Assembly: GCA_026826555.1 (NCBI GenBank)
Contig: JAKSZT010000116.1
Span: 3,362,387 to 3,426,386 of the forward strand
Direction: 5' to 3'
DNA length: 64,000 bases
Source: Tolypeutes matacus
Taxonomy: Eukaryota > Chordata > Mammalia > Cingulata > Chlamyphoridae
A program made the position numbers and the translations under genes. Shown in pieces: positions 22,953 through 31,796 of the stretch. The stretch's first letter is position 1. The number at the start of each line of letters is the position of its first letter. The notes beneath the pieces are model-generated. The model saw only the letters and a list, made by a program, of their open reading frames with translations. It did not search any database and was not told the DNA's origin.

Positions 22953-23090
22953 CTTCCTTGTTGGGAGCCGTCACTGGACTCTGCCAAGAGAGGTGCCAAC
23001 AACCTAAGCGACAGCAACCAGTGGCTACATAGCACAACATGGCGCAGGCACAAAATCTGCTTTGTCACTTCCTTGTTCTTTTTCCTCCTT

Positions 23091-23176
23091 GCTCCTTTGT
23101 TCTTCGGTTCCCACCTCTACCTAGGTGATTGTAGCTCCTTTGTTCTCCGGTTCCCATTTCTACCTAGGTGATTGTA
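23091..23176 (+). repeat. U3 tandem repeat, two 43-bp units
   Basis: The units at 23091-23133 and 23134-23176 both begin 'ctcctttgttct'-like and contain 'ctacctaggtgattgta'. Duplicated U3 blocks in retroviruses usually carry enhancer sites. The 3' LTR has the same pair at about 31430-31515. Confidence 0.9.
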
Positions 23177-23200
23177 ACGATATGCAGGCGCAGGGCACAA

Positions 23201-23272
23201 GAGTAAAATCTGCCCCTACCCTAGCAACAGCATTGAGAGTAAAATCTGCCCCTACCCCAGCAACAGTACCCT
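23201..23272 (+). repeat. U3 tandem repeat, two 36-bp units
   Basis: The units at 23201-23236 and 23237-23272 both begin 'gagtaaaatctgcccctacc'. The pair lies just upstream of the TATA box, so a promoter-proximal enhancer role is plausible. It is repeated in the 3' LTR at about 31540-31611. Confidence 0.9.
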
Positions 23273-23453
23273 CCAATCTTGGAGTGCCCCGACTCACTTC
23301 CCTTCTCCAAACAGCATATAAGCCCTGCTCCTTCAAATAAAATTTGCAGCTTGATCAGAATACTGTCTTGCTGTCATTCCTTGCGTCTCTTGTCCCACCA
23401 TTCTTTCTCGGCAGGTTTCGGGTCCTCGTTGATGTCCCGCGGGCCGGGACAAC

Positions 23454-23471
23454 TGGCGCCCAACGTGGGGC
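23454..23471 (+). promoter_or_regulatory. Primer-binding site, tRNA-Lys1,2 type
   Basis: The sequence 'tggcgcccaacgtggggc' starts two bases after the LTR. It is the complement of a tRNA-Lys1,2 3' end, the primer used by type D retroviruses. It would start minus-strand DNA synthesis. Confidence 0.95.
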
Positions 23472-23675
23472 TCGACGATTCCCTGTGATCGAGAAAAGAA
23501 CGCCGCTTCACCACAGAAGGAGAGCGCTCTCCAGCACCTCAGCCGACGAAAGGCTCACAGCAGCGAAAGAGAAAAAGCACTGCACCAACCCGCCGCCTCT
23601 TCAGTCTGGTCCCGGGCGTGGGACCAGTCTCCAGGCGGGTAAGTGAAACTCTCTGTTTCACTTCATTTCTTAATC
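23472..23675 (+). promoter_or_regulatory. Leader with major splice donor (GT at 23639)
   Basis: This is the untranslated leader between primer site and gag. A strong donor, 'cgg|gtaagt', has its GT at 23639-23640, 37 bases before the gag ATG, and matches the acceptor before env. A C/G-rich near-palindrome, 'ggtcccgggcgtgggacc' (about 23608-23625), could form a stem-loop of the dimerisation/packaging kind; that role is inferred. The purine-rich part near 23560-23575 has no assigned role. Confidence 0.8.
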
Positions 23676-29173: not shown

Positions 29174-30868
29174 ATGTTTCCCCCTCTCCGCCTCACTATC
29201 CTTATACTGTTCCCTTGTTCTGTCATTCTGACTACCCATATCTGGCAGTTCACAGTAACTGAAAGAGGGAAAACGCTCGGCATAGGGTTTTGCGATGAGG
29301 CAGGCTGCCAGCGTCCAACCTCTATTACATTTGATGCCTCCAAATCTCCTACCCTTAAGTCAGCACTTCGACCCTTCATCTGCTTTGACTTTGACCAAAC
29401 CAGAGACTATTGCCACAAAAAGTTCACCATAGATTATGGTGGATGCCCATATTGGTCTTGTGTTATCCATGATGCATATAATGACGCTGCCTCTGGAGGA
29501 GGCAGATATATCTCTTTTGCCCTAAAAGGCAACACATTCAACCTTACTATAAAAGACCCTTGGGATGCTAGGTGGCAAAAAGGAATTTATGGTCAAATGT
29601 ACACAACTGGATATTCTAGTACACCCAGCGCTTCCCTCTATATAGCTCGTGCCTATGTTCCCAACCCAAACAAAAACCCTATAAAAAAAACTCAACAAGA
29701 AATACAAAGCGCTGAGGCTACCCTTACCTCACAGCTCTCCCCCTCCTCCGCCTCTCCTTCTCTCTCTCATACCTTTTTGTCTTCGTCCCTAAAGGACCCC
29801 CTACCCACTTGGCCCATGCTACTTCAATGCGCCTTAAATCTTCTTAATATCACTACACCTAATGCAAATGTTTCTGATTGCTTCCTTTGTGCTTCATTAT
29901 ACAAACCCTTACTCACCATCGTTCCTTCTCCTGTCACCAATGTTAATACCTCTGATGACTGTCCCAATCTTAATCTAACTATCACTATTCCGCTATCCCC
30001 TCATCCAACAAATGTTTCAAATTGTTTCGGCTTCAATCATACCTCAGATACACCATCTTTCAATTGTACTAACACAATCACTTTGAATGCTTCTATCGTC
30101 GCTCCTCCTGGACACTTCTTCTGGTGTAACCTCACACTCTTTACTTGTATCAATGCATCTTCACCTGGTCCGTGTTTGCTTGTCACTACCGTCCCTAGTA
30201 TGACTCTTTATACCCGTGCGGAATTTCTTCCTCAAGCCTTTTCAGATCGTAACAAGAGAGCAGTGTTTGTCCCTCTGCTGATAGGAGTCAGCATGACCAC
30301 CGCCCTTGCTGCTGCCGGAACCTCTGGTGCTGCCCTAGGGTATAGCATCTCCAGTGCTAGAGACTTCGAAGAAAAACTTGAAGCCGCCCTGGAATCCACC
30401 TCCGCATCGCTCGCTGCATTACAGCGTCAGCTCACATCTCTGGCACGCGTGGTTCTGCAAAATCGTCGAGCACTTGACCTCCTCACTGCAGACAAAGGTG
30501 GCGCTTGTCTCTTCTTAAAGGAAGACTGTTGTTATTATATCAATGAATCAGGAACAGTTGAACAAAACATAGATGTGTTAAACAAAATCATGGAGGACTT
30601 CCGTAAAAGGCGATCCCCAGAAAACCCAAGCCCATTCTCTTGGCTATCCTCTTCAGTACTCCCCTATATAATCCCTATAATAACTCCTCTTATAACCTTT
30701 CTGCTTATCTTAACCTTCGCACCTTGGGCTTTACGAAAAATTATTCAGCTAGTCAAAGATCAGATTGACTCCGCTCTTGGCAGGTCCATTCAGGTACATT
30801 ACCACCGGCTCCACCTTGCTGACCAAGGCATGCCAGCAAACCATCTGTGTACTGCTCCCTCCGTTTAA
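29174..30868 (+). CDS. env: Env glycoprotein (SU-TM), intact, 564 aa, gamma/type D class
   Basis: Env mediates receptor binding and membrane fusion. The start is ATG 29174, the first after the splice acceptor. A hydrophobic signal peptide covers about residues 1-21. Surface subunit: many N-X-S/T sites and a CXXC motif 'CFLC' at 236-239, as in Env proteins whose subunits are disulfide linked. Furin-type site 'RNKR' at 359-362; a hydrophobic alanine/glycine-rich fusion peptide follows. Transmembrane subunit: 'LQNRRALDLLTADKGG' from residue 428 and CX6CC at Cys445, Cys452-Cys453. Membrane span about 495-519, then a cytoplasmic tail of about 45 residues. This is the gamma/type D Env class, unlike the MMTV/HERV-K class. 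A Gly-Gly-Gly at 108-110 sits where a receptor-contact motif lies in relatives, but its surroundings differ. No internal stops. Confidence 0.97.
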   Translation: MFPPLRLTILILFPCSVILTTHIWQFTVTERGKTLGIGFCDEAGCQRPTSITFDASKSPTLKSALRPFICFDFDQTRDYCHKKFTIDYGGCPYWSCVIHDAYNDAASGGGRYISFALKGNTFNLTIKDPWDARWQKGIYGQMYTTGYSSTPSASLYIARAYVPNPNKNPIKKTQQEIQSAEATLTSQLSPSSASPSLSHTFLSSSLKDPLPTWPMLLQCALNLLNITTPNANVSDCFLCASLYKPLLTIVPSPVTNVNTSDDCPNLNLTITIPLSPHPTNVSNCFGFNHTSDTPSFNCTNTITLNASIVAPPGHFFWCNLTLFTCINASSPGPCLLVTTVPSMTLYTRAEFLPQAFSDRNKRAVFVPLLIGVSMTTALAAAGTSGAALGYSISSARDFEEKLEAALESTSASLAALQRQLTSLARVVLQNRRALDLLTADKGGACLFLKEDCCYYINESGTVEQNIDVLNKIMEDFRKRRSPENPSPFSWLSSSVLPYIIPIITPLITFLLILTFAPWALRKIIQLVKDQIDSALGRSIQVHYHRLHLADQGMPANHLCTAPSV

Positions 30869-31008
30869 GGCTGCTGAGTGCATAATAAATCGCTGCAGAG
30901 AGCAGTCATAGGCAAGAGCAACCTGACTGTTCCCTAATAAGCACGCCTCATCAGTACAGGGGTTTGCTCTACTCATAGAACTTGCCAGGCAAAAACGCTC
31001 ACAGAGGT
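30869..31008 (+). other. 3' untranslated spacer after env
   Basis: Non-coding sequence between the env stop and the export element. An AATAAA-like string occurs ('gcataataaatcgc' near 30880), so premature polyadenylation is conceivable. No other signal was recognised. Confidence 0.6.
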
Positions 31009-31195
31009 GCTGGGCTGGATAGCCAATGACGGGCAACTGCACTGGCCCCTCAGTCAACCTAAGACAGGGACATGTCCTTGCTGCCATGCTTCCCAATGAC
31101 GGGTAAGACTGATCATATAATGAGTAAGGTACACTGTCTCTCAAATGCAGTTCCTTACGGGGTACAGTTCCGACCTAAGACAGGCACAGTCCCCC
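31009..31195 (+). promoter_or_regulatory. Constitutive transport element (CTE)-like RNA
   Basis: It lies between env and the 3' LTR. Two copies each of 'aatgacggg' (31025-31033, 31095-31103) and 'cctaagacagg' (31058-31068, 31174-31184) alternate. Folding pairs the first with the last and the two inner ones with each other, giving two identical internal loops related by a half turn. This is the known arrangement of the type D CTE, which binds the host export receptor NXF1 and brings unspliced RNA to the cytoplasm. The position also fits. Confidence 0.9.
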
Positions 31196-31279
31196 TCCTT
31201 TACACCGCGTTGCCTGTGCTACCCCCCTCATGAGGCCTTGACTTCCTCAGCCAGCCTACGGAGAGTACTGTGCTAAATT

Positions 31280-31297
31280 AAAGAAAAAGGGAGGAGA
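31280..31297 (+). promoter_or_regulatory. Polypurine tract
   Basis: An unbroken run of 18 purines ('aaagaaaaagggaggaga') directly abuts the 3' LTR. It would resist RNase H and prime plus-strand DNA. Confidence 0.95.
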
Positions 31298-31790
31298 TGT
31301 TGGGAGCCGTCACTGGACTCTGCCAAGAGAGGTGCCAACAACCTAAGCGACAGCAACCAGTGGCTACATAGAACAACATGGCGCAGGCACAAAATCTGCT
31401 TTGTCACTTCCTTGTTCTTTTTCCTCCTTGCTCCTTTGTTCTTCGGTTCCCACCTCTACCTAGGTGATTGTAGCTCCTTTGTTCTCCGGTTCCCATTTCT
31501 ACCTAGGTGATTGTAACGATACGCAGGCGCAGGGCACAAGAGTAAAATCTGCCCCTACCCTAGCAACAGCATTGAGAGTAAAATCTGCCCCTACCCCAGC
31601 AACAGTACCCTCCAATCTTGGAGTGCCCCGACTCACTTCCCTTCTCCAAACAGCATATAAGCCCTGCTCCTTCAAATAAAATTTGCAGCTTGATCAGAAT
31701 ACTGTCTTGCTGTCATTCCTTGCGTCTCTTGTCCCACCATTCTTTCTCGGCAGGTTTCGGGTCCTCGTTGATGTCCCGCGGGCCGGGACA
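31298..31790 (+). repeat. 3' LTR of betaretrovirus provirus
   Basis: It is 493 bp, TG...CA, same length as the 5' LTR with two substitutions and no indels. AATAAA lies at about 31675-31680, so transcripts should end shortly after. It carries the same U3 duplications. Confidence 0.97.
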
Positions 31791-31796
31791 CTTCCT

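What the first reader, a model, noticed from the sequence alone, without database searches (positions are those of the whole stretch)
22953..31796. Fully open, young betaretrovirus provirus in a xenarthran-like genome
Every expected part is present: 6-bp target duplication, two 493-bp LTRs with two differences, primer site, splice sites, frameshift sites, four open genes with catalytic residues, export element and polypurine tract. If one assumes about 2e-9 substitutions per site per year, two differences in 493 bp suggests an age near one million years; the rate is an assumption. Such completeness is rare in mammalian genomes and suggests recent or ongoing germline activity.
Basis: partly seen in the sequence, partly recalled or inferred. 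Interest (0 to 1): 0.92.

Follow-up and report, generated by a model that had tools for sequence, protein, structure and literature searches.

The report
Young retrovirus with swapped envelope gene
A complete, recently inserted retrovirus in a mammal's DNA carries the body of one virus family and the envelope of another, and copies of both families sit in the same genome.

Summary
Confirmed: 22953-31796 is a complete betaretroviral provirus (TSD CTTCCT, two 493-bp LTRs with 2 differences, four open frames). Its host genome is held (3.63 Gb) and relatives of both parents are in it. Family C shares A's backbone but has an RDR-type Env (SDGGG..D..R motif in 5 of 7 loci). Family B has another pol, 3' end and LTR but nearly the same Env. 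A switches C-to-B between 29046 and 29052 (end of integrase) and B-to-C at 30738|30739 (start of the Env cytoplasmic tail); informative sites A=B/A=C are 28/207, 106/6, 189/7, 1/44. So ectodomain and membrane span were exchanged while the tail stayed with its backbone. The Env is ERV-Fc-like. Of 14 close same-strand pairs of exact A-type LTR cores, 11 are spaced like a shorter, coding-poor element; all 12 sampled loci fit that. Host species is unresolved: not the annotated Dasypus novemcinctus or Tamandua. Env-swapped betaretroviruses are known; this is a new, sharply resolved variant. Function is inferred.

The parts
22953..22958 (.). target-site duplication CTTCCT, left copy
22959..23451 (+). 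5' LTR, 493 bp
23091..23176 (+). 43-bp tandem duplication in U3 (also 31430-31515); family C LTR lacks most of the second unit
23454..23471 (+). primer binding site (tRNA-Lys1,2 type by recall)
   Evidence: Rfam MPMV packaging model begins here, below threshold
23638..23639 (+). splice donor G|GTAAGT (exon ends 23638)
23676..25733 (+). gag, 685 aa, MGQ start, PSAP, MHR, two CCHC knuckles
25550..25556 (+). gag-pro -1 frameshift heptamer GGGAAAC
25538..26506 (+). pro open frame: dUTPase, protease, G-patch
26419..26425 (+). pro-pol -1 frameshift heptamer AAAAAAC
26410..29124 (+). pol open frame: RT (YMDD), RNase H, integrase
29046..29052 (+). crossover 1, family C backbone to family B env segment (between last C-like site 29046 and first B-like site 29052)
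29052..30738 (+). segment shared with family B: last ~70 nt of pol, splice acceptor, Env signal peptide, SU, TM ectodomain, membrane span
29152..29153 (+). env splice acceptor (exon starts 29153); the homologous junction is seen in three spliced family-B copies
29174..30868 (+). env, 564 aa: CFLC, RNKR cleavage site, LQNRRALDLL, CX6CC; no SDGGG motif
30738..30739 (+). crossover 2, family B env back to family C backbone, about Env residue 522
30739..30868 (+). Env cytoplasmic tail of family C type
31023..31188 (+). export-element-like region: repeats 31023/31093 and 31057/31173
   Evidence: function not shown
31280..31297 (+). polypurine tract
31298..31790 (+). 3' LTR, 493 bp
31791..31796 (.). 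target-site duplication CTTCCT, right copy

Best explanation
The window holds a young endogenous betaretrovirus that is a double-crossover recombinant. Two betaretroviruses of the same host lineage, one with an RDR-type Env (family C) and one with an ERV-Fc-like Env (family B), were probably co-packaged, and reverse transcription switched template near the end of integrase and again at the start of the Env cytoplasmic tail. The product (family A) kept C-like LTRs, leader, gag, pro, pol, Env tail and 3' UTR and took B's splice acceptor, SU and TM. Inferred consequences: the ASCT2-type receptor motif is gone, so receptor use has probably changed; the tail that must work with C-like Gag was kept. 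The family then re-entered or amplified in the germline about 1-2 My ago, and a shorter coding-poor element with the same LTR and ends probably used its proteins. Shown: mosaic structure, breakpoints, parents' relatives in the genome, young age, purifying selection, short partner elements. Inferred: co-packaging, receptor change, reason for tail retention, mobilisation of the partner.
For: Mosaic: A=B/A=C informative sites 28/207 (28201-29049), 106/6 (29053-29300), 189/7 (30260-30738), 1/44 (30739-30868); alignment of 3 B and 3 C loci at each junction. Outside the swap A matches C: gag 84-90%, pro 88-89%, pol 88-96% nt. Inside it A matches B: env 91-92% nt in L013-L017, about 90-91% in L018-L020, while pol is 76% where alignable and LTR and 3' UTR do not match. 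Trees: IN puts A with C_L053 and Dasypus P0039 (97/94), B next; TM puts A with B (94/91) and C elsewhere. SU: A-B 85-87%, A-C only 26% over about 147 aa. SDGGGPQDQVR in 5 of 7 C env loci, not in A. LTR ages: A 0.9 and 1.8 My, B four loci 2.9-4.7, C two loci 2.6-4.7, the order expected, although the intervals overlap. dN/dS 0.15 in gag and IN (A vs C), 0.08 in TM and 0.35 in SU (A vs B).
Against: No sampled B or C copy is the direct parent: gag dS A-C is 0.43-0.45 but IN dS 0.23, so the backbone may hold further crossovers. A-B identity falls to about 79-88% in parts of SU (29700-30100) against 92-97% elsewhere in the env. Direction is by parsimony. C sampling is thin at the 5' junction: one row in the site count (L053), three in the alignment.
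Confidence: 0.86

Rival explanations
1. The swap went the other way: family A is the older holder of the Fc-like Env on this backbone, B took it from A, and C later acquired an RDR Env.
For: With three lineages any one can be the derived one; the A TM rows and the B TM rows each form their own branch in the tree.
Against: Needs two exchanges instead of one. A shows the two junctions, is the youngest by LTR divergence and has the fewest env copies: 4 full-length plus one broken locus against roughly 20 B-type loci. That SRV/SMRV-type relatives carry RDR Envs is recalled and from paper passages, not tested here.
Confidence: 0.1
2. The junctions are assembly chimaeras or gene conversion among proviruses in the germline, not a viral recombinant.
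For: Long repeated elements are prone to misassembly; N runs occur inside some loci.
Against: Three further independent loci on other contigs (C2256, C2048, C584) carry the same C-type pol end and B-type env at 99%; the window copy has a matching TSD and C584 too (GTTTGC). Germline gene conversion before amplification cannot be fully excluded.
Confidence: 0.03
3. Nothing but an ordinary young type D-like betaretrovirus with its ancestral Env.
For: Betaretroviral gag-pro-pol, tRNA-Lys-type PBS, gammaretrovirus-type TM as in type D viruses.
Against: The Env ectodomain is not of the RDR kind found on the sister backbone.
Confidence: 0.01

Closest known systems
Chimeric, unfixed endogenous betaretrovirus of nine-banded armadillo using ASCT2 (Malicorne et al. 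2016, J Virol; paper not held, known here only from a title in reference lists and sentences in PMC10536682 and PMC10152393)
   Same: Betaretrovirus with a captured gamma-type Env in a xenarthran; my family C (RDR motif) looks like the same kind; nearest gag and pol relatives of A are Dasypus proteins.
   Different: The window's Env is ERV-Fc-like without the RDR motif, on the C-like backbone. Whether the paper's screen of 162 env ORFs includes an A- or B-like Env could not be checked.
Desmodus rotundus endogenous betaretrovirus (DrERV)
   Same: Close pol relative: P0078, 69% over residues 300-872; joins A, B, C and Dasypus in the IN tree at 100/98.
   Different: Outside the A+B+C clade; its Env was not compared.
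ERV-Fc-like TM on betaretrovirus-like genomes of mouse and rat (Diehl et al. 2016, PMC4798954, section 12 read)
   Same: Beta backbone with Fc-type Env.
   Different: Other hosts and backbones; that passage describes no parental lineages in the same genome. The paper found ERV-Fc in every eutherian superorder except Xenarthra.
SERV-K/MER11 (HML-2 x HML-8 recombinant of Old World monkeys, PMC11379458, passages read)
   Same: Young recombinant betaretrovirus clade with a junction in env TM.
   Different: There the membrane span and tail were replaced and the ectodomain kept; here the reverse.
MusD/ETn and similar autonomous/non-autonomous pairs (recalled, no call)
   Same: Coding-poor element sharing LTR and ends with an intact provirus.
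   Different: Mobilisation is not shown here; the short element carries a degenerate RT and a C-type TM fragment.

Membership tests
Betaretrovirus (genus) | gag-pro-pol in three frames with two -1 frameshift sites, dUTPase in pro | tested here: met
Betaretrovirus (genus) | integrase falls within the betaretroviral clade | tested here: met
   IN tree, grouped with DrERV and Dasypus element; SRVs in the wider clade (25 rows)
Betaretrovirus (genus) | p10-type matrix, two zinc knuckles, tRNA-Lys-type PBS | tested here: met
   the tRNA assignment is by recall
RDR interference group (ASCT2 users) | SU with SDGGG..D..R motif | tested here: not met
   absent from window Env; present in 5 of 7 family C loci
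RDR interference group (ASCT2 users) | receptor use | not testable with these tools
   needs binding or interference assays
ERV-Fc | Env related to HERV-Fc across SU and TM | tested here: met
   16 of the 22 hits are named FC1/BabFc or unnamed relatives of these at 31-42% identity, best P0001 40% over 88% of the query; the other 6 are a Pan protein and syncytin-A types (and relatives). SU 31-39% with 10 of the 12 Fc-type database rows aligned, others 26% and 35%
ERV-Fc | gammaretroviral gag and pol of the Fc lineage | tested here: not met
   gag and pol are betaretroviral
Armadillo ASCT2 chimera of Malicorne et al. 2016 | sequence identity to the published provirus | not testable with these tools
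   paper not held
Autonomous/non-autonomous pair of the MusD/ETn kind | shared LTR and ends with a coding-poor interior | tested here: met
   12 of 12 sampled short loci
Autonomous/non-autonomous pair of the MusD/ETn kind | mobilisation in trans by the intact element | not testable with these tools
   needs an assay

The most novel reading that the evidence does not exclude
One recent exchange turned an ASCT2-type betaretrovirus of this host lineage into a virus with an ERV-Fc-like Env while keeping the Gag-matched cytoplasmic tail; the recombinant is still insertionally polymorphic and, with the non-autonomous partner that shares its LTR, is behind the youngest wave of LTR insertions in the genome.
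Probability: 0.35. Interest if true: 0.72.

Novelty: new variant of a known kind. Interest (0 to 1): 0.6.

Why it matters
Env capture is credited with making new retroviral lineages, but the parents are usually gone or distant. Here recombinant and relatives of both parents lie in one assembly, so the crossovers can be placed within a few bases and dated relative to each other. They spare the cytoplasmic tail, which suggests that Gag-tail fit limits which Env swaps survive, a testable rule. It also shows an ERV-Fc-like Env in a genome whose betaretroviruses are nearest to armadillo ones; the 2016 ERV-Fc survey reported none in Xenarthra.

Tried and rejected
Host identification failed. Named-species proteins were used as probes in the host genome: P0023 and P0030 (Dasypus) 70% and 67%, P0001 (Tamandua) 45% for the best-scoring hits. 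This excludes those annotated genomes as the host, not other xenarthrans. Pfam on eight window ORFs outside the provirus found no host gene.

Empty site: 800 bp of host flank joined at the hexamer gave 41 places; 38 run across the junction without the provirus, at 76-85% identity, so they are paralogues of a host repeat, not the allele; the other three are the window's two halves and one short piece (40 of 308 candidates scored).

IMG/VR scan with Env: 7 pattern matches, none a relative. Export element: Rfam and folding gave no support. A first IN tree held a row that lacks integrase (C_L048). One search repeats it without that row; it also leaves out B_L015, B_L017, P0092 and P0186 and adds A_L010. 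In one search one C locus (L025) had only SDGGG and one (L040) no motif in the pieces held.

The 370-place LTR count (up to 3 mismatches, reversed-pattern control 0) includes family C LTRs, which differ from the pattern at 3 bases, so only the 90 exact places (my hand count of the list) are used for family A.

The env search counted 'only the 8000 candidates sharing most words', so absence of SRV Envs among its 22 hits is weak; the direct test is family C Env.
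Full report
Observation. It differs between LTRs at 2 of 493 positions.

The host genome is held. G000 has 3.63 Gb in 5002 contigs and the window is C12:3362387-3426386. An LTR search scored 40 of 1031 candidates; 40 of its 42 matches cover 487-493 bp at 98-100% identity, the other two are short pieces. All 6 non-window loci returned (L003-L008) are solo LTRs with no internal sequence within 1.5 kb; 5 of 6 have an exact 6-bp duplication, and four of them are identical to one another.

Three families. The Env search scored 77 of 5207 candidates and listed 78 matches. 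Four full-length Envs at 99-100% (window, C2256, C2048, C584) and one broken locus (C2658, 97-98%) are family A. Roughly twenty loci at about 83-91%, many of them pieces, are family B. A further set matching only residues from about 200 to 564 at 41-43% is family C (checked as such for the 7 loci fetched, L025-L029, L039, L040); another set at 37-47% over most of Env looks like older ERV-Fc-type copies. Five family C env loci of 7 read SDGGGPQDQVR, one SDGGG only, one neither.

The mosaic. In 100-base bins, five of the B loci (L014-L017, L020) are about 70-75% like the window in pol up to 29000, 91-99% in the first 500 bases of env, and unalignable after 30800. Family C is 84-90% in gag, 88-89% in pro, 88-96% in pol, 78-94% in the leader, 83-85% in the last 207 bases of env and 77-88% in the 3' UTR; the LTR aligns at about 70% with gaps. 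Fine alignment and informative sites (only sites where rows agree within each family, B differs from C, no gaps, and A equals one of them) place the crossovers at 29046-29052 and 30738|30739. The second falls after the membrane span (judged by eye); the A and C tails are alike to the C-terminus, B's diverges and ends differently. The same arrangement is in three other loci.

Trees. IN: A, C_L053 and a Dasypus element form a clade (97/94), B joins (91/89), then DrERV plus P0079 (100/98). TM: A with B (94/91) beside Fc-type Envs; C falls on the other side of the midpoint root with syncytin-A types (85/83, not strong). SU of A is 85-87% like B (5 loci) and alignable along its length with Fc-type Envs, whereas C aligns only over about 147 residues at 26%.

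Selection and age. A versus C: dN/dS 0.15 in gag (dS 0.43-0.45) and 0.15 in IN (dS 0.23). A versus B: 0.35 in SU, 0.08 in TM. Within A 0.23-0.34; B L014 versus L016 0.53. The unequal dS along the backbone means that A's direct parent is not sampled and further crossovers are likely. LTR differences: A 2/493 and 4/493; B 6/390, 5/387, 8/389, 8/390; C 9/439, 5/439. At an assumed 2.2e-9 this is about 0.9-1.8 My for A and 2.6-4.7 My for B and C, with overlapping Poisson intervals. TSDs match exactly in 5 of the 6 B and C proviruses and in 5 of 6 bases in the sixth.

Partner element. Among 90 exact matches to a 41-base LTR core there are 14 same-strand pairs within 10 kb: 2 at 8.34 kb (the window and C584), 11 at 6.26-6.98 kb and one at 1.6 kb (hand count). 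I sampled 12 short loci, the 11 plus C1080 (5.4 kb, one core with a mismatch): eight 3' halves and four 5' halves. All carry A's ends (leader 95-98%; first 629 nt of gag 94-96% in three and 85% in one; 3' UTR 94-99%) and none matches A between 24304 and 30637. The interior holds a degenerate RT (37-45% protein identity to betaretroviral pols) and a TM fragment 66-73% like C Env. An interior probe scored 40 of 3275 candidates; 28 places match all 901 bases at 96% or more. Two family C env loci (C4599, C4899) have a related interior upstream (85-90%), so the short design is older than A.

Mechanism. Template switching between co-packaged genomes is the established route for retroviral recombination (general knowledge). 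Keeping the tail fits the idea that betaretroviral Env tails must work with their own Gag, which is inference here. Loss of the SDGGG motif makes ASCT2 use unlikely; the receptor is unknown.

Splicing. Three family B copies (L013, L018, L019) read the leader joined directly to the env acceptor, so the acceptor that A inherited from B has been used in nature. L013 and L018 have the shape R-U5-leader-env-U3-R followed by an A run and flanked by direct repeats, as expected of LINE-made copies of spliced env mRNA.

Literature. Eight searches listed no paper that by title or abstract start describes this mosaic; subscription papers are mostly not held, and the key armadillo paper could not be read. 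Read: section 12 and passages of PMC4798954; passages of PMC3758190, PMC10536682, PMC10152393, PMC11379458, PMC8877266, PMC13315792 and PMC11536146.

Verdict. A real, young, complete provirus, and a finely resolved env-swap recombinant. The kind is known; the instance, with relatives of both parents in the genome and a conserved tail, is informative.

Noticed in passing
window 11567-20886: An older gammaretrovirus-type element just upstream: direct repeats 11567-12071 and 20384-20886 (85%), and an ORF at 14063 with Gag_p30, protease and zinc-knuckle matches.
   Followed up: partly
L013 (C4205), L018 (C4362), L019 (C3): Family B env genes without gag-pol, joined to the leader at the splice site; L013 and L018 end in an A run with flanking repeats and keep env open without a stop inside, L019 has one stop. 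Candidates for env genes separated from the virus.
   Followed up: partly
L061-L072: Short element sharing family A's LTR and ends; about 1.2 kb of its interior before the RT remnant has no identified origin.
   Followed up: partly
window 22559-22958 and 31797-32196: The provirus lies in a multi-copy host repeat: 38 other places run across the empty site at 76-85% identity.
   Followed up: no
window 26606-26894: Sub-threshold Rfam match to the RSV stability element (45 bits, cut-off 105) inside pol coding sequence; probably shared RT coding sequence.
   Followed up: no
C4814:6798421 and 6807200: Two A-type LTRs on opposite strands about 8.8 kb apart; arrangement not explained.
   Followed up: no
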